DNA of 64,000 bases, taken from assembly GCA_027485645.1 (NCBI GenBank), contig JAIXQR010000007.1:496001-560000 (forward strand), given 5' to 3'. Shown here one piece after another: positions 961 to 22,757 of the stretch; position 1 is the first letter of the stretch, and each line of letters opens with the position of its first letter. Below the pieces are notes generated by a model. The model worked only from the letters and a program-made list of their open reading frames with translations, searched no databases and was not told the DNA's origin. The stretch comes from a bacterium (GTDB lineage: Bacteria > Armatimonadota > Fimbriimonadia > Fimbriimonadales > Fimbriimonadaceae). The position numbers and the translations under genes are program-made.

Positions 961-1263
961 CTAACGGGGAGCGCCGGTTGCTCGACCAGCCGTAGGTGGA
1001 TTCTTGATCACATCCCAGTACTTTCTGGCACTTTCTTCTGACTTGCTTTCAAATGTATTGATGAACTTCTGCTTATCTTCCGGTGAAAGTGCATCAAAGT
1101 CACCTTTTGCTTTGTCAAAAAGTTCTTTGCGGGTCTTGCCGAGTTCTTCAGCCGTGGCCATGTAGCCCTTGTCAAGTTGTCCGGTTTCCGACTCGCTGCA
1201 GCCCGACACGCCTAGACCGGCAAGCAGCAACATTGCTAGAAAAAAGGCACCAGTGACTTTCAT
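961..1263 (-). CDS. small lipoprotein, putative LacI-regulon member
   Basis: This is a 100-residue protein with a signal peptide and lipobox (LLLAGLGVSGC, lipidated Cys at about residue 22), followed by a short charged helical domain. I recognise no family. The segment LSPEDKQKFINTFESKSEESARKYWDVIKN looks like a small helical bundle and the tail is Pro/Gly/Arg rich. It is exported and probably anchored in a membrane. A clear sigma70 promoter with an embedded LacI-type operator lies directly upstream. The minus-strand regulator follows 53 nt downstream, so the two may share transcripts. Function unknown. Confidence 0.8.
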   Translation of the reverse strand: MKVTGAFFLAMLLLAGLGVSGCSESETGQLDKGYMATAEELGKTRKELFDKAKGDFDALSPEDKQKFINTFESKSEESARKYWDVIKNPPTAGRATGAPR

Positions 1264-1269
1264 GTCACT

Positions 1270-1298
1270 AGTTTAGGTGAACCGGTTCAGTTTGTCAA
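1270..1298 (-). promoter_or_regulatory. sigma70-like promoter with embedded LacI-type operator
   Basis: On the minus strand TTGACA (1298-1293) is separated by exactly 17 nt from TAAACT (1275-1270). The spacer contains the perfect palindrome TGAACCGGTTCA (1278-1289). The start codon begins at 1263, only 6 nt past the -10 box, so the mRNA would be leaderless or nearly so. A repressor bound here would block RNA polymerase. The match to the site in front of the LacI-family gene at 907 makes that protein the likely ligand. Confidence 0.75.
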
Positions 1299-1376
1299 GA
1301 CCGAGAGCGGCTCTTTCTACCAAATGCTTGGAGGTGGCGCATCGACTTCGCATTAGTCAGTTGCTGGATACCGGTT

Positions 1377-2498
1377 TTACGCAGCAGAATCATCCCCGAC
1401 TATCAACAAAATCCTAAATAAACGATCAACGTCCGAGATCAGCACCCGTTCATCAATCCCGTGCATGGCGACCGGGACGAGGCCGAACTCCAAGGTCTCG
1501 ATTCCCTCGGCAACAAAGTGCCGGGCGTCGCTGGTGCCGCCGCCGGTGCTGAGGTTGGTTTCGATTCCCGTCACCGACCGGATAGCGTTTGCCACCTTCT
1601 CGGCCAAGGCACCCGGGGGCGATAGGAACGGAACGGCGCTGGCGTTCCAAACCGCCTCGAACCGCACGCCATGCTTCGCTAAGATCGCCTCGGTTCGCTG
1701 AATCAGAACCTCGGCCGGTGAACCGGGTCCGTTACGGAAGTTGAGCCCGACAAAGGCTTCGCCGGGAATCACGTTCGAGGCACCCGCTCCGGAGCGGAGT
1801 TCCCAGACTTGCATGCTCGTCGGCGGGAAGAATTCATCCCCCTCGTCCCACTGCTCCGACACCAACTCGCTGAGCGCGGGAGCGAGCATGTGCGCGGCGT
1901 TCTCGGCCAGGTGGGCATAGGCGACGTGGCCCTGAACGCCTTGGACGGTGATTCGCCCGGTGAGCGATCCACGCCGGCCCGGTTTGCAGGTGTCACCGAG
2001 CACCGAAACCGAGGTCGGTTCAGCGACCAGCGCGCTCTGGATCACTTCCCCACGTTCCAGCAGGAATCGCAGCGCGCGGACGGTACCGTCGTCGGCTTTC
2101 GCTTCTTCGTCGCTAGTCAGCAGCAGCGCCAACCCATCCGCTTCCCCGCTCGCGGCGAGGCGTTCGAGCGCGACGACCATTGCCGCCACGCCGGACTTCA
2201 TGTCGCTGGCGCCGCGACCGTGGAGGTAGCCGTCCTTCTCGGTTGGCGCAAAAGGATCGCTGCTCCACTCGGCAATCGGTCCTGGCGGAACCACGTCGGT
2301 ATGACCATTGAAGCAGAGCCGCACCGGTCCGGTGCCCATCCTCACCCAAAGGTTGTCGGTCTCGCCAAACCGAATTCGCTCGACCGCGAACCCGGCACGG
2401 GTCAGCCGTTCCGCGATGATGTCTTGGCATCCCGCATCATTCGGCGAGACCGACGGCCGGGCGATCAGTTCTTTGAGGAGGGCGAGGACTTCGGGCAT
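1377..2498 (-). CDS. dapE: succinyl-diaminopimelate desuccinylase
   Basis: Hydrolyses N-succinyl-LL-2,6-diaminopimelate to LL-diaminopimelate and succinate, feeding lysine and peptidoglycan synthesis in the cytoplasm. At 373 residues it has the normal length of the M20 metallopeptidase family. Visible motifs are the first zinc-ligand block FNGHTDVVPPG (about residues 64-74), the GRGASDMKSG block with the bridging Asp, the catalytic glutamates in LLTSDEEAKADDGT, and the C-terminal STGGGTSDARH segment. The start ATG shares one base with the dapD stop (TGATG), so translation is coupled. It is the last gene of a dapC-orf-orf-dapD-dapE cluster. Confidence 0.95.
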   Translation of the reverse strand: MPEVLALLKELIARPSVSPNDAGCQDIIAERLTRAGFAVERIRFGETDNLWVRMGTGPVRLCFNGHTDVVPPGPIAEWSSDPFAPTEKDGYLHGRGASDMKSGVAAMVVALERLAASGEADGLALLLTSDEEAKADDGTVRALRFLLERGEVIQSALVAEPTSVSVLGDTCKPGRRGSLTGRITVQGVQGHVAYAHLAENAAHMLAPALSELVSEQWDEGDEFFPPTSMQVWELRSGAGASNVIPGEAFVGLNFRNGPGSPAEVLIQRTEAILAKHGVRFEAVWNASAVPFLSPPGALAEKVANAIRSVTGIETNLSTGGGTSDARHFVAEGIETLEFGLVPVAMHGIDERVLISDVDRLFRILLIVGDDSAA

Positions 2499-3313
2499 CA
2501 GTCGTTCCGAAGAAGCTCGTTTAGGGCGGTCTTGGCCCGCGTTTGGGCGTCGACTCGCTTCACGATGACCGCGCAGGCCAGCGAGTGCGAACCGTCCTTG
2601 CTTGGCAAGGAACCAGGGACTACAACCGATCCCGAGGGGACGCGGCCGTAGGTGACTTCGCCGGTCGCGCGATCGTAAATCTTCGTGCTCTGACCAATGA
2701 AAACGCCCATGGAGATGACGGAGTTTTCCTCGACAATCACGCCTTCTACGATCTCGCTTCGGGCACCAATGAAGCAGTTGTCTTCGACAATCGTCGGGTT
2801 CGCCTGAATCGGCTCCAGCACGCCGCCGAGCCCGACGCCGCCGCTGAGGTGGACGTTCTTGCCGACCTGCGCGCAGGAGCCGACGGTCGCCCAGGTGTCA
2901 ACCATCGTGCCCTCGTCCACGTAGGCACCCACGTTCACGTAGCTCGGCATAAGGACGACGTTCTTGGCAAGATACGCGCCTTTTCGGGCGAAGGCAGGGG
3001 GAACGATTCGGTATCCGGCGGCGCGGAAATCGGCATCTTCCAGCCCTTCAAACTTCGAGGCGACCTTGTCGAAGTACGGGAATCCAGCGGACATGATTTG
3101 GTTGTCCTTCAGTCGGAACGAAAGCAGGACCGCTTTCTTGATCCATTGGTGGGTCACCCAATCGCCGTCGATCTTTTCGGCGACGCGGATGGTGCCGCTG
3201 TCGAGTTGGGCTAGGGTCGTTTCAACCGCTTCTCGGACGTCGGTCGGATGGCTGCTCGGCGAGAATTCGGTTCGACGCTCCCAGGCGTCGTTGATGAGGG
3301 TTTCCAGATTCAC
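2498..3313 (-). CDS. dapD: 2,3,4,5-tetrahydropyridine-2,6-dicarboxylate N-succinyltransferase
   Basis: Transfers succinyl from succinyl-CoA to tetrahydrodipicolinate, the committed step of the succinylase lysine branch. The 271-residue protein has the DapD N-terminal helical domain followed by a left-handed beta-helix of hexapeptide repeats (for example [19 protein letters not shown] and [19 protein letters not shown]) and the C-terminal part [20 protein letters not shown]. The start is GTG at 3313, whose bases overlap the TGA of the upstream gene (GTGA), and the stop overlaps the dapE start. This gives a tight chain of coupled genes and presumably equal expression of DapD and DapE. Confidence 0.96.
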
Positions 3314-3924
3314 TTAGCCGGGTGTACCCCAGCAGATGCGTGGATACGCGGCACGTAGCCCGCTTGCAGAATGCGGACTAAGCTCGGCGCGGTGATCTGA
3401 TGCGCCCGGTGCGGCAGATGAACCTCCGGTCCGTAGCCGGAATGTGACCACTTTCTCGCGTGGCGACCGAGTTTGACGAACGCATCGCCATCGGCTTCGA
3501 ACATCGCAAAATCGGGCAGTTCCAGCGGCACGATCTTCGGTCTTTCGCCGTGGATCATGGGCACTCGCTCGACGTGGAGCTGCCGATCGATATCAAACGC
3601 GGGCGGCTTTTCGTCGAATGCCTCCTGCCAAGCATCGCGGAACCGGTTGTAATCCTCCCGACGACATAGCGCACAAGGTCGGTGCCCCGCGGCGAGCGCG
3701 GTGACTTCATCGAGAAAGAACAGCTCGGTGTAGGTGCCGGGCGACATGAGGGGCCGCCGAACGCCCTTGTATTCCAGTTCGCAACTAATCCAAAGCCGCG
3801 CCTTCCAGCGTTCGGAAACGAGCTTCCCGTCCAGATGCAAAATTCCGCGGTTCCCCATGAGGTCTCCGCGAGCGGAGCTGGCTTCGATGCGGCTAAAGGG
3901 GGTGACGCGGTTTTGTCTTGGCAT
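3310..3924 (-). CDS. conserved protein of unknown function in the dap operon
   Basis: This 204-residue protein has no signal peptide. Its strongest segment is [39 protein letters not shown], with a Cys-x2-Cys pair after an HRP motif; it also has a central [13 protein letters not shown] stretch and a C-terminal [20 protein letters not shown] that is rich in His. The pattern suggests a metal-binding or nuclease-like domain, but I do not recognise a named family. Its stop overlaps the dapD GTG start, so it is co-translated with the lysine genes. Whether it works in lysine synthesis or is only co-transcribed is unknown. Confidence 0.8.
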
Positions 3925-4025
3925 GGCTCTTTGCCAGTTTTACCGAGTGTTCACTGACTCCAGATCAACACCCGCCGTCGTGGCGAGTGGGACATTGAGA
4001 TCGCATAGAACTCGCACCTAAGGAA

Positions 4026-4451
4026 CTATTCCGGTTCAGGTCCGAGGAAGTTTTTCCTGTATAGCTCGGTTACTTCCTTTCCGACACTATCAGGGTCGAC
4101 GTATATCCAGAACGGAAGCATCTTGTTCACACCCTGTTCCTTCCACACGAAATAGAACGTGCCAGCCCAAGGCTGCGGCTCTTCTATCTCGTACCCCCCA
4201 TCTTCGTTCTCCTTATGCCGTGTGGAACGAGTAAGCGCTACCAATATCTTTCGAATCACCTCTGGCCGGCGCTCCGATGTCGGGCTGGCCAGCGGAAGCT
4301 TAAGTTTCTGTCGACCACGTGCCCATATTCCACTTACTCGAATTTCGTGGACTCGCTTTTTGAGGAGGAATCTGGCTATGTGCTGTATTTGCTTGTTCGG
4401 AATTCGCTCCTCCGCCAAACCAATTGCCAGAACCGCCGCGGCGAGGATCAT
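4026..4451 (-). CDS. hypothetical protein coupled to dapC
   Basis: A 141-residue protein whose start overlaps the dapC stop as ATGA, so it is translated after dapC. The N-terminus (ILAAAVLAIGLAEER) is hydrophobic and could be a short signal or membrane segment. The rest is basic in the first half and acidic at the C-terminus (KNFLGPEPE). The segment GTFYFVWKEQGVNKMLPFWIYVDPDSVGKEVTELYRK looks like a compact alpha/beta unit. I recognise no family. A 101-nt gap with no visible promoter or terminator separates it from the next cluster gene. Confidence 0.65.
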   Translation of the reverse strand: MILAAAVLAIGLAEERIPNKQIQHIARFLLKKRVHEIRVSGIWARGRQKLKLPLASPTSERRPEVIRKILVALTRSTRHKENEDGGYEIEEPQPWAGTFYFVWKEQGVNKMLPFWIYVDPDSVGKEVTELYRKNFLGPEPE

Positions 4452-5653
4452 TGAATTGGCCCCGCGCTACTCACTGCACTGTTCTGGACCAAGTCAGACA
4501 TCGCCTCTGCGGCGCGGACGCAAGTCGCCAGATCAGCAACTAACGCAATCCGCACGTATCCAGCGCCGGAGTTTTGGCCGTTTGCATCTCGGGCGAGATA
4601 CGTCCCGGGTAGTACGGTCACGTTAGCGGTGGCATAGAGCTCCCGAGCGAACGCCTCGTCCGACCCTGCCCAGCGAGATGACTCCGGAACTTTCGCCCAA
4701 AGGAAGAAACCCCCGGCCGGGATTTCGCATGGCAACACCTGATTGACCATCGGCTGACAAACCTCAAACTTCTCCCGGTAGAGTCGCCGGTTCTCCCCTA
4801 CGTGGGCTTCGTCTGACCAGGCTACGGCGCTGGCCTGTTGCACGACCGAGCTAGGTGCAGCACCGTGATAGGTGCGGTGGAGGCGAATCTTATCCATCAC
4901 ATCGGGCGCACCAAAAATGAATCCCGAGCGAAGCCCTGGTGCGCTGGATCGCTTGCTGAGCGAGTTCAAAACGACGACGCGCGGATTCTGAGTTTGAACG
5001 CCCCCATAGGGCGGCTCGGATTGGTACAGCTCGGAATACGGCTCGTCGGAAACGATCAGGAAGTCGAACTCGTCGGCGAGCTGGGTCAGCGCCTGGTAGT
5101 GATCGGCGGAGATGACCGAACCGGTCGGGTTACCGGGCGAGCACAGATACACCAGTTGCACCCGTGGCCACACTTCGGCGGGAACAACCGAGAAGTCGGG
5201 CAGGAACTGCGTTCCGGCGACCGTCGGGACATAGAACGGTTCCGCCCCGGCCATGATCGCGGCACCTTCGTAAATTTGATAGAAAGGGTTCGGAACCAGC
5301 ACGACCGGCCGGGTTGATGGATCGATGATCGCCTGGGCGGCGGCAAACAGCCCCTCTCTTGACCCGCTCACGGGCAAGATTTGCCGGGAAGCATCGACTT
5401 CCACCCCGTAGCGTCGGTGAATCCAACCGGCGACGGCGGTGAGAAATTCTGGCGTTCCACCGGTCGGCGGATACTTTGCAAGCAAGCCGAGGTTGGCGTG
5501 AATGGCGTCGAGCAGAACCTTTGGCGTCGCGTGCTGCGGCTCGCCAATGCCCATGTTGATGTGCGGCAAATCTGCAGGTGGAACCACGCCAGCAAAGAGG
5601 GACCGCAGACGTTCAAATGGGTACGGATGCAGCAGGTCCAGCGCGGGGTTCAT
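4448..5653 (-). CDS. dapC: N-succinyldiaminopimelate aminotransferase (DapC-type PLP aminotransferase)
   Basis: A fold-type I PLP aminotransferase of 401 residues. The N-terminus LDLLHPYPFERLRSLFAG followed by INMGIGEPQHATP is typical of the DapC group rather than general aspartate aminotransferases. The PLP-binding blocks are VSGSREGLFAAAQ, YLCSPGNPTGSV, SDEPYSELY and the Schiff-base lysine in NSLSKRSSAPGLRSGF (about residue 233). The predicted reaction is transamination of N-succinyl-2-amino-6-ketopimelate with glutamate. Linkage to dapD and dapE supports this over ArgD or a broad-specificity enzyme. It starts the minus-strand lysine cluster and is divergent from groES, with the CIRCE region between them. 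Confidence 0.9.
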   Translation of the reverse strand: MNPALDLLHPYPFERLRSLFAGVVPPADLPHINMGIGEPQHATPKVLLDAIHANLGLLAKYPPTGGTPEFLTAVAGWIHRRYGVEVDASRQILPVSGSREGLFAAAQAIIDPSTRPVVLVPNPFYQIYEGAAIMAGAEPFYVPTVAGTQFLPDFSVVPAEVWPRVQLVYLCSPGNPTGSVISADHYQALTQLADEFDFLIVSDEPYSELYQSEPPYGGVQTQNPRVVVLNSLSKRSSAPGLRSGFIFGAPDVMDKIRLHRTYHGAAPSSVVQQASAVAWSDEAHVGENRRLYREKFEVCQPMVNQVLPCEIPAGGFFLWAKVPESSRWAGSDEAFARELYATANVTVLPGTYLARDANGQNSGAGYVRIALVADLATCVRAAEAMSDLVQNSAVSSAGPIQ

Positions 5654-5687
5654 ACGAGGGGTTTACCCAGATTTTTGGTCCCAGATA

Positions 5688-5749
5688 TTGCAGTCGTTAG
5701 CACTCAAAACGGTATAGTGCTAATAGCAGGCAACGCCGGAGAGTGCTAA
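5688..5749 (+). promoter_or_regulatory. groES promoter with CIRCE operator and an extra half-site
   Basis: TTAGCACTC (5697-5705), 9 nt, then TAGTGCTAA (5715-5723) is a CIRCE element with one mismatch from the TTAGCACTC-N9-GAGTGCTAA consensus. A further exact half-site GAGTGCTAA lies at 5741-5749. A plausible promoter is TTGCAG (5688-5693) and TATAGT (5713-5718) with a 19-nt spacer, so HrcA bound at CIRCE would cover the -10 box. CIRCE is the HrcA binding site; no hrcA gene is in this window. Confidence 0.88.
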
Positions 5750-5781
5750 TTCTTGGCTTGCCTTCCAACTCAGGAGAACCT

Positions 5782-6093
5782 ATGGCGATCAAACCGTTAC
5801 ACGATCGAATCATCATCAAGGCGGCCGCGAAGGAAGAAAAAACCGCTAGCGGCATCATCTTGCCAGACACCGCACAAGAGAAGCCACAGCGCGGCGAAGT
5901 GCTCGCGGTTGGCCCAGGCAAGCGACTTGACAGCGGCCAGCTTGCCGCCGTCGACGTAGTTGTCGGAGACATCGTTCTCTACGGCAAGTACAGCGGAACC
6001 GAAGTTAAGGTTGACGGCGAGGACCTCATCATCCTTCGCGCCGAAGACGTTTTGGCCGTTCTCTCGAACGTCGCCGTGCCTGCAAACGCATAA
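5782..6093 (+). CDS. groES: co-chaperonin GroES
   Basis: The 10-kDa lid of the chaperonin, 103 residues. It begins [13 protein letters not shown] and contains the mobile-loop region [31 protein letters not shown] and the end [20 protein letters not shown]. The start at 5782 is chosen because it has a good Shine-Dalgarno site (AGGAGA, 5772-5777) and gives the family N-terminus; the longer frame from 5743 lies inside the operator. It is followed by groEL after 9 nt and is under CIRCE control. Confidence 0.98.
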
Positions 6094-7707
<1,614 letters not shown>

Positions 7708-16474: not shown

Positions 16475-17739
16475 GACTTTACGATGCTTCGAAGGTGCGA
16501 TTCGAAGTTTGGATAACTGGTTTGGATGCTGTCGGCGTTTTCGATCACCGTGTGGCCATCGGCAACGAGACCGGCAATGGCGAACGCCATACCGATGCGG
16601 TGATCGCCGCTAGCATCGATGGTCGCGCCCTTTAAAGGCGTTGGACCTTGGATGACAAATCCGTCTTCGGTCGCCTCGACGTTCGCTCCCATGGCGCGTA
16701 AGCCTGCGGAGACAACGCCAATACGATCGGTTTCCTTCACTCGGAGTTCTCGCGCGTCTCGGATGATCGTTTCCCCATTCAGTTGAGTTGCCAACACGGC
16801 GAGTACAGGTATTTCATCGATCAAGCGCGGGACCAAGCTGCCTTCGATGACGAACGGCTTCGTGGCATCTCGGGTGATTTCGAGATCGGCAACCGGTTCC
16901 CCGTTCTCTTCTCGCGGGTTCCGGTGGACAACGGTCGCGCCAACTTGATTGAGCACATCCAAGATGCCAGTGCGCGTCGGGTTCACGTTCACGCCGATCA
17001 GCGTGAGAGGCTGCTCGGCTAGGAGTGCGCCCGCAACTAGCCAGAAGGCCGCGCTGCTGATGTCGCCCGGCACTCGCATTTCAAAAGGCTTGAGGTCGAA
17101 GCTGGGCTCGATGGCTACGGCGTTTCCATCGACCGTGATCGACGCTCCCATCGCGGTCAGCATCCGCTCGGTGTGGTCTCGACTCTTTGTGGGTTCATGT
17201 AAGACGGTCTTTCCCTCGGCTCGAAGTCCGGCGAGAAGGACGCAGCTTTTGACCTGGGCCGAAGCAACTTCGGAGTGGTAGGTGATGCCGTGCAACTGAC
17301 CGCCTTGGATGGTCAGGGGCGGGGTTTCACCGGTAACGACCGCTCCCATTTCGTTTAGCGGTTTTGCGATGCGCTTCATCGGGCGGCGAGAGAGTGAGGC
17401 ATCTCCCTTCATGGTCACGGTCCGCGGTCGGCTAGCGAGAAGCCCGCTGAGAAGGCGCATGGTGGTTCCGCTGTTACCGCAATCGAGCGGCTCAGTTGGT
17501 TGAGACCATTCTGTGGCGGGGATCACCGTGACGAAGGTGCCGTCGTCCTCAAAGCGCGTTCCAAGTTGCTCCAAGCAGTGACGCGTTGACTCACAATCTT
17601 CACCGCGTAACGGATTCTCAATCCGGCTTGGCCCGTTTGCGATGGCACCGAGGAGATAGGAACGGTGGGTCAGCGACTTATCGCTTGGGATCACGATCTC
17701 CCCAGAAACGGCTTGGGCCCGAGTTACAACTAGCTTCAT
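16471..17739 (-). CDS. aroA: 3-phosphoshikimate 1-carboxyvinyltransferase (EPSP synthase)
   Basis: Joins phosphoenolpyruvate to shikimate-3-phosphate in the shikimate pathway. The 422-residue protein shows the substrate site IPSDKSLTHRSYLLGAIA (about residues 16-33), the LDCGNSGTTMRLLSGLL block and the RELRVKETDRI block near the C-terminus. Its start overlaps tyrA by 4 nt and its stop overlaps cmk by 4 nt, so all three are translationally coupled. The Gly in NSGTTMRLL is followed by T, as in many EPSP synthases; nothing here lets me judge glyphosate class with confidence. Confidence 0.96.
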   Translation of the reverse strand: MKLVVTRAQAVSGEIVIPSDKSLTHRSYLLGAIANGPSRIENPLRGEDCESTRHCLEQLGTRFEDDGTFVTVIPATEWSQPTEPLDCGNSGTTMRLLSGLLASRPRTVTMKGDASLSRRPMKRIAKPLNEMGAVVTGETPPLTIQGGQLHGITYHSEVASAQVKSCVLLAGLRAEGKTVLHEPTKSRDHTERMLTAMGASITVDGNAVAIEPSFDLKPFEMRVPGDISSAAFWLVAGALLAEQPLTLIGVNVNPTRTGILDVLNQVGATVVHRNPREENGEPVADLEITRDATKPFVIEGSLVPRLIDEIPVLAVLATQLNGETIIRDARELRVKETDRIGVVSAGLRAMGANVEATEDGFVIQGPTPLKGATIDASGDHRIGMAFAIAGLVADGHTVIENADSIQTSYPNFESHLRSIVKS

Positions 17740-18620
17740 CTTTTCTTTGCTCCAGTCACATCATCGCCCGCATTCTTGGGCAGTTTTGCCTTGGCCGCGG
17801 CGGCGGAGACGAAGAACTTCTTCACCGCCGCTGCGTCGCCCTCGTCGAGCTGCGTTGCTAAGGTCTCGAGTTCCTTTGCGAACTCGCGCAAGCTGGTCGA
17901 GACGGCGGTTCGGTTGCCGAGCAGAATCTGGGACCACAGTTCAGGATCGACTCCCGCCACCCGGGTCCAGTCTTTCCAGCTCCCGCCCGCGGCATCCACG
18001 TGGGAGAGTTCCGAGGCGTTGAGCACCAATTGTCCGGCCAGGACGTGCGGCAGATGGCTGAGGATCGCAACGTGGCGGTCGTGGTCTTCCGCCGATATCC
18101 GCACCGGCTTCGCCCCCATTTCGGTAATCAGAGTTTCCAGCACTTTCAGATTGCTGGTTGATTTACCGACTGGGGTCAGAATCCAGCGGGCGTTGCGAAA
18201 GAGCCAAGCGCTGGCAAACTGTGGGCCGCCCTTCTCGTGCCCGGCCATGGGGTGACCCGGCACGAACCAAGTTGCCTTCTGGCTGGTCGCCCAGCTGACG
18301 ATCTCCGACTTGACGCTTGTGCAGTCGGTCACCACCGTGCTTGCGCCGACATGCGGCTCTATTTCCGCTAAAACTTGGGTAACGATAGCTGGCGGGATGG
18401 CGACGAAGACGACGTCCGCCTTGGCGACCTCGCTGAGCTCGGCAGCCACATCAACGCAGCCACGCTCGAGGGCAACGCGGACGTGCTCCGGGTTCGGATC
18501 GCAACCGATCAGCTTGTGTCTGGACGCTCGGAGCGCCAGCCCAATGCTGCCGCCAATCAACCCGAGTCCGACAATCCCAATGGTCACAGGGATTAGTTTG
18601 GCATGGCAACCCGCTGGCAA
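17736..18620 (-). CDS. tyrA: prephenate dehydrogenase
   Basis: Oxidative decarboxylation of prephenate to 4-hydroxyphenylpyruvate with NAD(P), leading to tyrosine. The 294-residue protein opens with a Rossmann motif GIVGLGLIGGSIGLALR and has VTDCTSVKSEIV and PGHPMAGHEKGGP, which are typical of TyrA. A GTG at 18587 would start directly before the Rossmann motif and is an alternative to the ATG at 18620. No ACT domain is present, so feedback control through such a domain is not expected. It is the first gene of tyrA-aroA-cmk. Its product also feeds the hppD enzyme encoded at 51598. Confidence 0.93.
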   Translation of the reverse strand: MPAGCHAKLIPVTIGIVGLGLIGGSIGLALRASRHKLIGCDPNPEHVRVALERGCVDVAAELSEVAKADVVFVAIPPAIVTQVLAEIEPHVGASTVVTDCTSVKSEIVSWATSQKATWFVPGHPMAGHEKGGPQFASAWLFRNARWILTPVGKSTSNLKVLETLITEMGAKPVRISAEDHDRHVAILSHLPHVLAGQLVLNASELSHVDAAGGSWKDWTRVAGVDPELWSQILLGNRTAVSTSLREFAKELETLATQLDEGDAAAVKKFFVSAAAAKAKLPKNAGDDVTGAKKR

Positions 18621-18804: not shown

Positions 18805-19416
18805 ATGCGGCTCCTCCGAAACTCTATCCAGACCACATCCTTAATCGGGTTAGCGCTATCTGGCTGTGCTCAAGTTCGCACTGAGCAGCCGAACGAACTC
18901 ATAAGTTCAAACACGCAGGCTTCTGATACCGGCTGCACCTTCTCAAAAACAGCACCTGCTGGTTGGCTCGCGAGAGAAGATGTAAGATGCGCAGCAGGAA
19001 CGATCCTCCCCATCATCCACATCTACATCGATGGAACAGAGAATTTCCGGGTAATCGACGAGTTACCAAAACGTATGGAGCCTTCCTTGGTCAAAGCACT
19101 AGCTCGCGCTAGATACAAGCCCGAGCGCAAACCTCAAGGTGGCTTCTTTCGGCAATATCCAGACAAGAACGACCTTCAAATTAACGTCTACAGCGATCGT
19201 TACCGCTTCTTTGGCGTCAACTTCGACACAATCGAAGACGATCTAGGGCCCGAGGTTGCCAAGTGGTTCAAGGACAACATGCCGGAGTTAAAGCGGTTGG
19301 GAGCTGCCGCGTGGGCTGGGCAGCCGACCGAAGCCCAGCCAAAACATGCGTCAAGGCAATCAATCCAACGGAATCTGCCAAGGTCCTCCCACGGAGGCGA
19401 TGTTGTCCTTCCGTAA
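18805..19416 (+). CDS. array lipoprotein A (C-x17-C family)
   Basis: A 203-residue lipoprotein: signal peptide with lipobox LALSGC. The mature part has the array signature C-TFSKTAPAG-x7-R-C-A (two Cys exactly 17 residues apart) and a later block LGPEVAKWFKDNMPEL. I recognise no known family. The gene is closely related to the next one at DNA level (19217-19343 resembles 19805-19925). After this point the tail departs: the paralogue's continuation can be followed only in another frame, so this copy looks truncated or frameshifted near 19345. The last 17 nt overlap gene B. Base composition looks less GC-rich than the flanking housekeeping genes. Confidence 0.75.
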   Translation: MRLLRNSIQTTSLIGLALSGCAQVRTEQPNELISSNTQASDTGCTFSKTAPAGWLAREDVRCAAGTILPIIHIYIDGTENFRVIDELPKRMEPSLVKALARARYKPERKPQGGFFRQYPDKNDLQINVYSDRYRFFGVNFDTIEDDLGPEVAKWFKDNMPELKRLGAAAWAGQPTEAQPKHASRQSIQRNLPRSSHGGDVVLP

Positions 19417-20287
19417 TCACAACTATATCTTCACCTTACTGGCCATCTGCTTAGCCAGCTGCTCTCCAGAGCGGCCTATTCGTTCAAACGCTCTGGCAGG
19501 TGCCGGATTACGGTCACCGGAGCGCGAATGTACGTTTTCGAAGGAAGCGCCAAAGGGTTGGCTGTCACGGGATGACGTCAGATGTGCGGCCAATCCGAAC
19601 GGTCAAATTCAAAGAATCATGACGAATAGTTCCAGAGGCTATCCGTTAGTCTCGAAATTTCCACCGGACTTACAACAGTCGTTTGTTTCAGTACTTTCCC
19701 AAGCGAGATATCGCGTGCCGAAGAAGCGTGAGTTCAAACGGGTTGGGTTGGGAGCCAATGATATGCAAGTCCATGTCGTTAGCGATCGAATCCGGAACTT
19801 TCCTGTGAACTTCGACTCCATCGAGGATGAGTTAGGACCCGAGGTGGCCAAGTGGTTTCGGGACAACATGCTGGAGCTGAGGCGGTTGGCAGCGGCAGGG
19901 CAACCGTCCGAGGCGGAACTCAAACAGAGGCGACCGAACACGTTCGGCCAGAACTTTGCCAAGAAGCTACTGACCAAGAACGTGACCGAGATCACCCTTA
20001 CGAATCACCCTCATCCGAACATTGTCTCAATTAAGAAGACAGCGGTAGTAGGGCGGCTCAAAGACCCGCAAGCCATAAAGGCGATGCTGGTAGCGATGTC
20101 TAAGTCGACCCATACCTTGGCAGGAGAGGAACCCAAGAACGCCCCGGACCGGCCACAGGAACTATCCTTCATGTACAAGGAAGGTACGGAGACGAAGATC
20201 GAGTCCTTCCGATGGTGGGGCTGGGAAGCCGATACGTGGGGCGAGGAGTTTTCCAGGCTCTTTAGCAAGCACTTCGAAGGACCTTGA
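19400..20287 (+). CDS. array lipoprotein B with extra C-terminal domain
   Basis: A 295-residue lipoprotein beginning MLSFRNHNYIFTLLAICLASC (lipobox LASC). The start at 19400 is chosen because GGAGG lies at 19393-19397 and the signal peptide follows directly. It has the family signature C-TFSKEAPKG-x7-R-C-A and LGPEVAKWFRDNMLEL. Unlike the other members it continues for about 120 residues (from TNHPHPNIVSIKKTAVV to WEADTWGEEFSRLFSKHF), a second alpha/beta domain that may be the ancestral full length. It is immediately followed by a fossil of the acuC 3' end. Function unknown. Confidence 0.78.
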   Translation: MLSFRNHNYIFTLLAICLASCSPERPIRSNALAGAGLRSPERECTFSKEAPKGWLSRDDVRCAANPNGQIQRIMTNSSRGYPLVSKFPPDLQQSFVSVLSQARYRVPKKREFKRVGLGANDMQVHVVSDRIRNFPVNFDSIEDELGPEVAKWFRDNMLELRRLAAAGQPSEAELKQRRPNTFGQNFAKKLLTKNVTEITLTNHPHPNIVSIKKTAVVGRLKDPQAIKAMLVAMSKSTHTLAGEEPKNAPDRPQELSFMYKEGTETKIESFRWWGWEADTWGEEFSRLFSKHFEGP

Positions 20288-20290
20288 GCA

Positions 20291-20323
20291 CTACGCCGCC
20301 GGGACACCTGGAAGAACGTCTAC
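20291..20323 (-). pseudogene. 33-nt fossil of the acuC 3' end
   Basis: These 33 nt match 21651-21683, the last codons of the AcuC-like gene, at 29 of 33 positions without gaps. Read on the minus strand they still give [10 protein letters not shown]-stop against [10 protein letters not shown]-stop in the intact gene. The rest of the gene is absent here. This marks an old tandem duplication in which a lipoprotein unit plus the neighbouring acuC end was copied. Confidence 0.75.
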
Positions 20324-20362
20324 GACGATAGACGTTAGCTTCATGTTTAGGTAGTCGGACCC

Positions 20363-20384
20363 TGGTAACGTCACAATGCCATGA
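20363..20384 (+). repeat. 22-bp leader repeat, copy 1 (in front of lipoprotein C)
   Basis: This 22-bp stretch, ending in the start codon of gene C, recurs at 20939-20960 in front of gene D with one mismatch (C versus G at position 12). It begins TGGTAACGTCA and ends AATGCCATGA. No Shine-Dalgarno site is visible in it. It may be a retained promoter or leader element. Confidence 0.75.
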
Positions 20385-20869
20385 AACTCAGCAAAAGCCT
20401 TCTTCCTGTGATTCTAGTTGCTAGTGTGGCAATTGGCTGTGATGCTCGCAAAGCAGACTACTTCAACGGGTGCACGGTCGACAAAACTGCACCCAGCGGT
20501 AGAGTAGCGGATGTGAGGACGCGTTGCGCAGCACACCCAGATCGCGGCCTCAGATCTGTGACAATCCTTGGCGTCTCACCAACGGGAAAGAATCGTTTAG
20601 GAACACGTCAACACGTTTCTCTCACTAAGTCCGAAATCTATAAGTTCAGCGAGGTCTTCAAGGTTGCCTCATCTGTTCCAGAGTGGGCAGGACGAAGCGC
20701 TCCAAATCCGGATTTGATGGTGAGGACCGCTCCTCTAGAGAGCGGTCCAGCGCGCGCTTTCTACATAAGTATTGAGCATTGCGATCAAATGTATGGATCA
20801 GAAGCGAGGGAGTGGTTGCTCAGGGACTTGTCAGGACTGACAAACCGTGGAAAGGTTTCGCTTCCGTAA
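20381..20869 (+). CDS. array lipoprotein C (C-x17-C family)
   Basis: A 162-residue lipoprotein with lipobox VAIGC. The signature is present as C-TVDKTAPSG-x7-R-C-A with the same 17-residue Cys spacing. The later block is more diverged (YGSEAREWLLRDLSGL) but keeps G-x-E-x3-W-L. It is only distantly similar to genes A and B, so the array was not made by one recent event. The start is fixed by the lipoprotein signal and by the shared 22-bp leader. Function unknown. Confidence 0.75.
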   Translation: MKLSKSLLPVILVASVAIGCDARKADYFNGCTVDKTAPSGRVADVRTRCAAHPDRGLRSVTILGVSPTGKNRLGTRQHVSLTKSEIYKFSEVFKVASSVPEWAGRSAPNPDLMVRTAPLESGPARAFYISIEHCDQMYGSEAREWLLRDLSGLTNRGKVSLP

Positions 20870-20938
20870 TGTGATTACCCGTATCCCTCTAACTGTCGGT
20901 TCGTCTAGAGGGCGTCAAGGACCCAAAGTGCGAACTCA

Positions 20939-20960
20939 TGGTAACGTCAGAATGCCATGA
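20939..20960 (+). repeat. 22-bp leader repeat, copy 2 (in front of lipoprotein D)
   Basis: Second copy of the leader element described at 20363-20384, again running into the start codon, here of gene D. Twenty-one of 22 bases agree. The flanking intergenic sequence of the two copies is not otherwise similar, so this short stretch seems to be selectively kept. Confidence 0.75.
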
Positions 20961-21553
20961 CTAGGATTAACCGCTGGCTACCTTGGGCAGTTGCCTCGTG
21001 GAGCACTATATTCGGCTGTAACCAATCACAAGGCATGGACTTTTCAAAGTGCGAGTTCTCAAAGGATGCCCCACCTGGGCGAGAGGCAAATCTTGAGGAC
21101 AGATGTGCAGTGAGCAGGAAGGAAGGACGAATATCGGGATTACTTGTAAGCATAAATTCGAACACTCGAATTGGGCGGTTTCGTGGAGGTGGTGCAGTCG
21201 TTACGGGTGGTGAACGTTTACGTCTCATTAAGATTCTTCAGAAAAGCAGCCACACAGTTAGTTGGCAGTATCCGCGTGGAGCGGATGTCACAATTCACAT
21301 AAAGCTCTCGGATGCGAGTACGCACCGGATAGCTTTGGAAATGGATACCGTTGCACAATCACACGGCGACGAATTGGCAAACTGGCTAAAAGTTGATCTT
21401 CCGAGGTATCTGGAAGAACGAGAAGCTCAAGCGCGTTCGGTCAAAGAGTCACCGAAACAGGAAGAAGCTATGGTCAACCAAGCGATCTCGAAATCGAAAT
21501 ATATAACGGGTCCTGACGGCAAGCTGATCATTAATCCAAACCGAAAACCTTGA
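20957..21553 (+). CDS. array lipoprotein D (C-x17-C family)
   Basis: A 198-residue protein with a weaker lipoprotein signal (WAVASWSTIFGC). The signature reads C-EFSKDAPPG-x7-R-C-A and the C-terminal block HGDELANWLKVDLPRY. A charged tail follows, ending in YITGPDGKLIINPNRKP. It is the last member of the array; its stop lies 97 nt from the 3' end of the convergent acuC-like gene. Function unknown. Confidence 0.73.
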   Translation: MTRINRWLPWAVASWSTIFGCNQSQGMDFSKCEFSKDAPPGREANLEDRCAVSRKEGRISGLLVSINSNTRIGRFRGGGAVVTGGERLRLIKILQKSSHTVSWQYPRGADVTIHIKLSDASTHRIALEMDTVAQSHGDELANWLKVDLPRYLEEREAQARSVKESPKQEEAMVNQAISKSKYITGPDGKLIINPNRKP

Positions 21554-21650: not shown

Positions 21651-22757
21651 CTACGCCGCCGGGACACCCGGAAGGACATCTTCCAAGTACTGCCGGATGA
21701 TCGGCTCGTTGGCTTCGATTCCGAGTCCATGCGGGATGGTTTCTGGGGCGTCGGAGAAGGTTTGGACTCCCCATTCCGCCGCCAGATCGGCAGGAAAGGC
21801 ATCGTCGAATTCAATGCGAGAAAGCGTCAAAATTGCCGAAACCCACATTCGCGGCACGGTGTGGAGACTGTAGCCGCCACCGCCGACGGCGACAGTCGGA
21901 ATTCCGAGGTCTCGGCAATGGCGGACGGCGCTGAGCCAGGAAGCCTGATCGCAATTGACGTGAGCGAGGGGGTCGAGGAAGTGGGGATCGGTGCCCATTT
22001 GGAGGACCAACGCTTGCGGCTGGAAGCGCTCCATTGTCGGCAGCGCGGTTCGTTCGAAGGCATCGAGCCAGGCCGGACCGGAGGTTCGAGCGAGGACCGG
22101 CATGTTGGTGCTTGTGCCCGCCATCCCGGTCTCCTCGACGTAGCCCGTTCCCGGCCAGAGGGACTTCCCGCTTTCGTGGATGGAGTAGGTCAGCACGTTC
22201 GGATCGTTCAAGAAAATGCCTTGCACGCCATCGCCATGGTGTACGTCGATGTCGATGTAGACCACGCGGTCGAATCGCTCGCGCAGCACCGACACGGCGA
22301 GGGCAGGATCGTCGAAGACGCAGAATCCGCTGGCGCTGTTTCGGTGCGCATGGTGCAGTCCGCCACCGATGGCAAAGGCCAGCGGAGCGCCGTCGCGGAC
22401 GGCGTAGGCAGCTTCCAGGCTCGCACCGCAGTATGCCGCGGACGTTTCCCAGATGCCACGAAACGCGGGGGTATCGCCGTAGAGCGAATGCTTCCCGATG
22501 AGGTCTCCAATCCGCGGCGAGTTCTCTTCCCCGCGCTCAAAGGCCGCTGAAATCTCCTTCACCGCCTCCACGTACTCCGCCGAGTGGACGCGTTGCAGGT
22601 CGCTTTCGCTGGCCGGTGCGGGTTCGATGACCTCGGTCGGATGTATGGCCTGCAGCAGGCGCATGGCCCGTCGAAGCCGCTCGGGACGAAGCGGATGGGA
22701 TGGCCCGAAATCGTAATTCGTCGTCAACTGGCTGAGGTAGAAGTTCGGGATTCCCAC
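21651..22757 (-). CDS. histone-deacetylase-family protein (AcuC-like)
   Basis: A 368-residue zinc amidohydrolase of the arginase/deacetylase fold. The start [28 protein letters not shown] is followed by the active-site block [22 protein letters not shown] (tandem His), the zinc-ligand block [13 protein letters not shown], and the substrate loop [15 protein letters not shown]. Bacterial members include AcuC, which deacetylates acetyl-CoA synthetase, and acetylpolyamine amidohydrolases; length and sequence fit the AcuC side. It is monocistronic and divergent from aroC with a 40-nt gap. A fossil of its last codons lies at 20291. Confidence 0.9.

What the first reader, a model, noticed from the sequence alone, without database searches (positions are those of the whole stretch)
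18805..21553. Array of four paralogous lipoproteins with an invariant C-x17-C signature that I cannot assign to any family
All four products are lipoproteins that share, after the lipidated Cys, the pattern C-x3-K-x-A-P-x-G-x7-R-C-A, with the two cysteines exactly 17 residues apart in every copy, and a later G-x-E-x3-W-[FL] block. The first two are close at DNA level and the other two are far diverged, so the array has been kept and expanded over time. Paired cysteines in an exported protein suggest a disulfide. The region looks less GC-rich than its neighbours. This is my best candidate for an undescribed family, perhaps a variable surface or toxin-immunity-like set.
Basis: partly seen in the sequence, partly recalled or inferred. 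Interest (0 to 1): 0.7.

Follow-up and report, generated by a model that had tools for sequence, protein, structure and literature searches.

The report
Orphan lipoprotein array beside acuC
Four related, fast-changing, membrane-anchored proteins in an Armatimonadota bacterium belong to a family missing from the databases searched, and look like leftover partners of a secreted protease-like protein whose gene sits in the same place in a sister species.

Summary
Four tandem lipoprotein genes (18805-21553) share C-x3-K-x-A-P-x-G-x7-R-C-A and G-x-E-x3-W-[FL]. Leave-one-out profiles recover each member, and only these four frames in the window match. No family matches in Pfam, NCBIfam, PHROGs or PADLOC. 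In 291 Armatimonadota genomes the domain occurs only here and in one sister species (G014).

New findings:
(1) The genes are an islet inserted between acuC and tyrA, which abut in G011.
(2) ORF2 is mosaic. Its second domain is 97-98% identical to G014 with ordinary synonymous divergence (dS 0.41, acuC 0.47), but its Cys domain is synonymously saturated, so that half was probably exchanged.
(3) In G014 the gene just upstream and overlapping is a secreted Fn3/FlgD-Ig protein with a clan-CD-like His-Gly/Asp-x-Cys signature. All four assessable homologues in the genus are followed directly by a small lipoprotein or membrane-anchored protein.
(4) ORF1 ends GGDVVLP, identical to that protein's C-terminus with only synonymous differences. 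ORF3 ends RGKVSLP.

Best reading: orphan tethered partners (inhibitor or immunity-like) left after loss of the protease-like gene. The pairing rests on few genomes and inhibition is untested. The Cys pair is not invariant in remote relatives.

The parts
18805..19416 (+). ORF1, lipoprotein: lipobox LALSGC, C-x17-C domain (18934-19305), linker, C-terminal tail GGDVVLP
18934..18993 (+). C-x17-C motif of ORF1
19393..19413 (+). ORF1 tail GGDVVLP, identical to the C-terminus of the clan-CD-like protein of G014; 5 of 5 base differences in these 7 codons are synonymous
19400..20287 (+). ORF2, two-domain lipoprotein (lipobox LASC), start overlaps the end of ORF1
19529..19894 (+). ORF2 first domain (C-x17-C), synonymously saturated against G014
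19910..20284 (+). ORF2 second domain (beta-beta-alpha-beta-beta-alpha in the model), 98% identical in G014
20291..20321 (+). left 31-bp copy of the acuC 3' end, bracketing ORF3-ORF4
20363..20384 (+). 22-bp repeat running into the ORF3 start codon (2 copies in the genome)
20381..20869 (+). ORF3, lipoprotein with C-x17-C domain, tail RGKVSLP
20939..20960 (+). 22-bp repeat running into the ORF4 start codon
20957..21553 (+). ORF4, lipoprotein with C-x17-C domain
21651..21681 (-). right 31-bp copy = true 3' end of acuC
21651..22757 (-). acuC-type histone-deacetylase-family gene, right border of the islet
17736..18620 (-). tyrA (prephenate dehydrogenase), left border of the islet; abuts acuC in G011
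4026..4451 (-). stand-alone exported homologue of the ORF2 second domain, about 15 kb away

Best explanation
The array is a set of membrane-tethered lipoproteins that act, or once acted, as partners (most likely inhibitors or self-protection factors) of a secreted, multidomain, clan-CD-like cysteine-peptidase-type protein. In this genome the peptidase-like gene is no longer at the locus. Each lipoprotein carries a small alpha/beta domain whose N-terminal loop would be stapled by the Cys pair and whose middle is hypervariable. Modules are exchanged: the peptidase-like gene in G014 sits where ORF1 sits here, and the first domain of ORF2 has been swapped. The C-terminal tails of ORF1, and perhaps ORF3, look like the last codons of lost peptidase-like genes. 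Shown here: family, islet, empty site, mosaicism, recurrent gene pairing, shared tail. Inferred: tethering outside the cytoplasm, disulfide, binding and inhibition of the partner, and loss of the gene rather than gain.
For: G014: an 827-aa Fn3/FlgD-Ig protein overlaps the start of the ORF2 homologue. Homologues of its C-terminal part occur in G002, G003 and G012. W-x-D-x-C-x-[ST]-A-G is kept in all four aligned and His-Gly in the three that reach it. The next gene is a small lipoprotein or membrane-anchored protein in all four. The G012 one carries CHEAPNGFVANSQFQL, and its two frame pieces score colinearly with the C-x17-C profile above 60 controls and above 200 shuffles each. ORF1 tail GGDVVLP equals the G014 protein's C-terminus with only synonymous differences; of 1605 distinct ORF ends examined, 6 end in [VF]x[LF]P: three of these protease-like proteins, ORF1, ORF3 and one other. 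ORF2 mosaicism: dS 0.41 in domain 2 (acuC 0.47) against pS 0.75 in domain 1; codon identity at unchanged residues 18/48 against 96/121, Fisher p 4e-7. tyrA and acuC abut in G011.
Against: No peptidase-like gene lies in the window locus, and no homologue was found in G000 at E<=0.001. The partner proteins of G002 and G003 show no significant profile match to this family; their likeness is architectural and read by eye. The G012 match is weak (HH probability 8%, E 0.004) and split over two frames. The G014 locus is broken by contig ends. No fold match above Z 5.6. Catalysis of the clan-CD-like domain is inferred from two motifs only, and Pfam does not name it. A shared 7-residue tail is short.
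Confidence: 0.42

Rival explanations
1. Variable surface lipoproteins: an envelope lipoprotein islet diversifying by domain exchange under pressure from phages, predators or neighbours, unrelated to any peptidase. The Cys-stapled domain is a recognition or decoy surface, and the neighbouring Fn3 protein in G014 is just another exported variable gene.
For: Domain exchange, hypervariable middle between conserved ends, lineage restriction to 2 of 291 genomes, low GC, insertion into an otherwise conserved gene neighbourhood, indel bracketed by a 31-bp repeat.
Against: Does not predict the recurrent gene pairing in four genomes or the peptidase-like tail on ORF1.
Confidence: 0.3
2. Lineage-specific orphan lipoproteins with no special role: duplicated, drifting genes in a permissive spot between acuC and tyrA, with gene conversion among copies.
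For: Narrow distribution, saturated divergence between ORF3 and ORF4, no known family.
Against: All four frames stay open with signal sequence, lipobox and motif. Between ORF1 and ORF2 and between ORF2 and G014 the dN/dS is about 0.2-0.3 over the whole gene, which suggests constraint, although dS is high.
Confidence: 0.2
3. Tethered protease inhibitors of the Streptomyces subtilisin inhibitor type (I16-like), acting on subtilisin-like serine proteases.
For: Second-domain topology beta-beta-alpha-beta-beta-alpha; weak Foldseek/VIA matches to SSI and sermetstatin (E 0.26; Z 3.4 for domain 2, 2.3 for domain 1).
Against: Scores lie inside the background. The mature ORF1 domain has two cysteines only, not two disulfides, and the pair precedes the first long strand.
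Confidence: 0.05

Closest known systems
PDB 4R7R, putative lipoprotein of Clostridium perfringens
   Same: Best fold match of the C-x17-C domain model: VIA Z 5.4, rmsd 3.8 A, 100 of 122 residues aligned, next entry Z 2.8. Also named a putative lipoprotein.
   Different: 8% identity, no profile match, and Z below 8 may be only a common arrangement.
Lipoprotein immunity or inhibitor genes encoded beside secreted effectors (general knowledge; orphan immunity arrays)
   Same: Small tethered protein directly downstream of a large secreted multidomain protein in relatives; orphan paralogues without the effector; module exchange.
   Different: Effector absent in this window, neutralisation untested, no match to any family in the libraries searched.
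Clan CD cysteine peptidases (caspase, gingipain and clostripain type; recalled from general knowledge)
   Same: The G014 protein and its homologues keep His-Gly and Asp-x-Cys motifs in the right order.
   Different: No Pfam, NCBIfam or PDB sequence match in that domain.
Streptomyces subtilisin inhibitor family (I16)
   Same: Similar strand and helix order in ORF2 domain 2.
   Different: Background-level fold scores; disulfide pattern differs.

Membership tests
Bacterial lipoprotein | N-terminal signal with lipobox ending in Cys | tested here: met
   PROSITE-type pattern found in ORF1, ORF3 and ORF4; ORF2 has L-A-S-C with a Cys at -4
Named Pfam or NCBIfam family | score above curated cut-off | tested here: not met
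   No hit for ORF1-ORF3; ORF4 only sub-threshold noise
Toxin-immunity pair | cognate effector gene adjacent | tested here: not met
   No effector-like gene in the window islet. In G014, G002, G003 and G012 a protease-like gene is adjacent
Toxin-immunity pair | small protein neutralises the effector | not testable with these tools
   needs biochemistry or genetics
Variable surface lipoprotein | sequence or domain exchange between alleles | tested here: met
   ORF2 against G014: synonymous divergence jumps between domains
Variable surface lipoprotein | exposed on the cell surface | not testable with these tools
   localisation experiment needed
Subtilisin inhibitor I16 (SSI) | two conserved disulfides | tested here: not met
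   Mature ORF1 has, besides the lipidated Cys, only the C-x17-C pair
Subtilisin inhibitor I16 (SSI) | SSI fold | tested here: inconclusive
   Foldseek E 0.26, VIA Z 2.3-3.4

The most novel reading that the evidence does not exclude
An undescribed secreted module in this Armatimonadota genus: a large Fn3/FlgD-Ig clan-CD-like peptidase plus a tethered, hypervariable lipoprotein that restrains it. Modules recombine, and deletion of the peptidase gene leaves orphan lipoprotein arrays that carry its last codons as a scar.
Probability: 0.3. Interest if true: 0.65.

Novelty: new variant of a known kind. Interest (0 to 1): 0.5.

Why it matters
If right, it would show a protease-and-tethered-partner system in a phylum with almost no genetics. 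It would also show how 'orphan' lipoprotein arrays can arise: by exchange and loss of the secreted partner, leaving a readable C-terminal scar. It gives a concrete, testable partner for a family that has no annotation. If wrong, it is still a new lineage-specific lipoprotein family with good sequence evidence of domain exchange.

Tried and rejected
Pfam, NCBIfam, PHROGs and PADLOC scans: nothing. PDB sequence search: nothing. Fold searches of both models gave no match above background except 4R7R (Z 5.4) and 4Q0Y (Z 5.6), both under the level at which a fold can be claimed. Apparent phage and viral matches lie antisense to annotated or longer genes and were rejected as chance. Plasmids: no match. 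Several of the weak single-sequence genome hits with ORF4 were read and rejected as unrelated or antisense frames. The idea that the two ORF2 domains are duplicates of each other: direct profile comparison is not significant, although one G024 protein matches both at the same place; left open. Cassette-recombination site hypothesis for the 22-bp repeat: only two copies in the genome, so more likely a duplicated start region. Rfam: nothing. Literature: nothing relevant. Promoter and terminator scans were at chance level.

Full report
Setting. The window lies in a 3.19 Mb genome of 7 contigs. Its closest relative held, G014, is the record titled 'Chthonomonas calidirosea isolate ME-09jul19-71', so the phylum is taken as Armatimonadota; the name comes from the record title only. 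Neighbouring genes are housekeeping: dapA, cmk, aroA and tyrA to the left, acuC and aroC to the right (cmk by reading the sequence only).

Observation. Four ORFs on the + strand match the description. The strict motif occurs in exactly those four frames of 527, and leave-one-out profiles show that they are one family. Invariant columns of the four plus G014 are C, K, A, P, G, R, C, A, D, G, E and W. The similarity of ORF1 and ORF2 at DNA level is limited to about 120-140 bp of the 3' part of the domain. ORF2 has a second domain (19910-20284), which also exists as a stand-alone, apparently exported protein at 4026-4451 on the minus strand and in G011.

Distribution. In all 291 phylum genomes held, the C-x17-C domain passes E 0.001 only in G000 and G014; one further hit at E 0.03 was read and rejected. 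Two remote relatives were found: a two-domain lipoprotein of G024 that matches the C-x17-C profile over 102 columns (E 5e-4) and the second-domain profile (E 2e-4), and the G012 protein described below. The G024 protein keeps A-P-K-G-W and D-G-P-E-L but not the two cysteines. The Cys pair therefore marks the close family, not the wider one.

Islet. In G011, acuC and tyrA abut, same strand and same order. Here 3.0 kb of opposite-strand lipoprotein genes lie between them. In G014 the ORF2 homologue ends right at acuC, while here ORF3 and ORF4 lie in between, bracketed by a 31-bp direct repeat of the acuC 3' end. The two-gene segment has therefore been gained here or lost in G014 at that repeat. 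A 22-bp sequence runs into the start codons of ORF3 and ORF4 and was found nowhere else in the genome with up to 3 mismatches.

Mosaic ORF2. Against G014, domain 2 is 97-98% identical with dS 0.41, like acuC (0.47). Residues 20-130 have 42% identity and pS 0.75, which is saturation. At residues unchanged between the two, the codon is also unchanged at 18 of 48 sites in the first part and 96 of 121 in the second (Fisher p 4e-7). Synonymous rates should not jump inside a vertically inherited gene, so the first domain was most likely replaced by recombination.

Partner. In G014 the gene upstream of and overlapping the lipoprotein is an 827-aa protein with Fn3 and FlgD-Ig domains. Its C-terminal part has homologues in G002, G003 and G012 that keep W-x-D-x-C-x-[ST]-A-G, and His-Gly where the region is covered. 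This resembles the clan CD dyad by motif only; no library names the domain. The two G012 pieces hit the first and second half of the C-x17-C profile in order, above 60 controls and above 200 shuffles each, though with low HH probability. The G002 and G003 proteins do not match by profile. A second, fragmented clan-CD-like copy in G012 was not assessed.

Scar. ORF1 ends RNLPRSSHGGDVVLP and the G014 protease-like protein ends NLIPKLLRGGDVVLP. In the seven shared codons all five base differences are synonymous, and the tail stands at the same place relative to the following lipoprotein gene. Among 1605 distinct ORF ends seen here, only six end in [VF]x[LF]P: three protease-like proteins (G014, G002, G003), ORF1, ORF3 and one other. 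This end pattern was chosen after seeing the tails, so the count is descriptive. The simplest reading is that ORF1, and perhaps ORF3, runs into the last codons of a lost protease-like gene. A shared functional tail is the alternative.

Structure. The ORF1 domain model is good (pLDDT 85.7, pTM 0.81): helix, strand, helix, strand, strand, helix. ORF2 domain 2 is modelled as beta-beta-alpha-beta-beta-alpha with moderate confidence. The best fold match of the first domain is 4R7R, a clostridial putative lipoprotein (Z 5.4). Cys-Cys distance could not be measured because no coordinates were available.

Conclusion. This is a real, undescribed, lineage-restricted lipoprotein family in a recombining islet. 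The best-supported function is a tethered partner, probably inhibitor or immunity-like, of a secreted clan-CD-like protein, orphaned in this genome. The gene pairing rests on four genomes and the inhibitory step is inference. A plain variable surface lipoprotein set is the main rival.

Noticed in passing
window 4026-4451 (-): Stand-alone, apparently exported homologue of the ORF2 second domain, between an aminotransferase-like gene and an unassigned gene; 31% identical to domain 2.
   Followed up: partly
L058 (G011 C11) 371-2891: A second-domain homologue lies between two paralogous exported proteins that look like beta-propellers; the unit seems tandemly duplicated. No Pfam match for the propeller-like proteins.
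   Followed up: partly
L059 (G024 C4) 1159-2022 (-): Two-domain lipoprotein bridging both domain families, followed by an exported repeat-type protein.
   Followed up: partly
L090 (G012 C23) 1900-7300 (-): Two clan-CD-like genes, one fragmented and one followed by a frame-split lipoprotein-like gene, interspersed with propeller-like exported proteins.
   Followed up: no
L072 (G014 C27 end) and L003 (G014 C22 start): Contig breaks on both sides of the islet in G014, so further paralogues there may be missing from the assembly.
   Followed up: no
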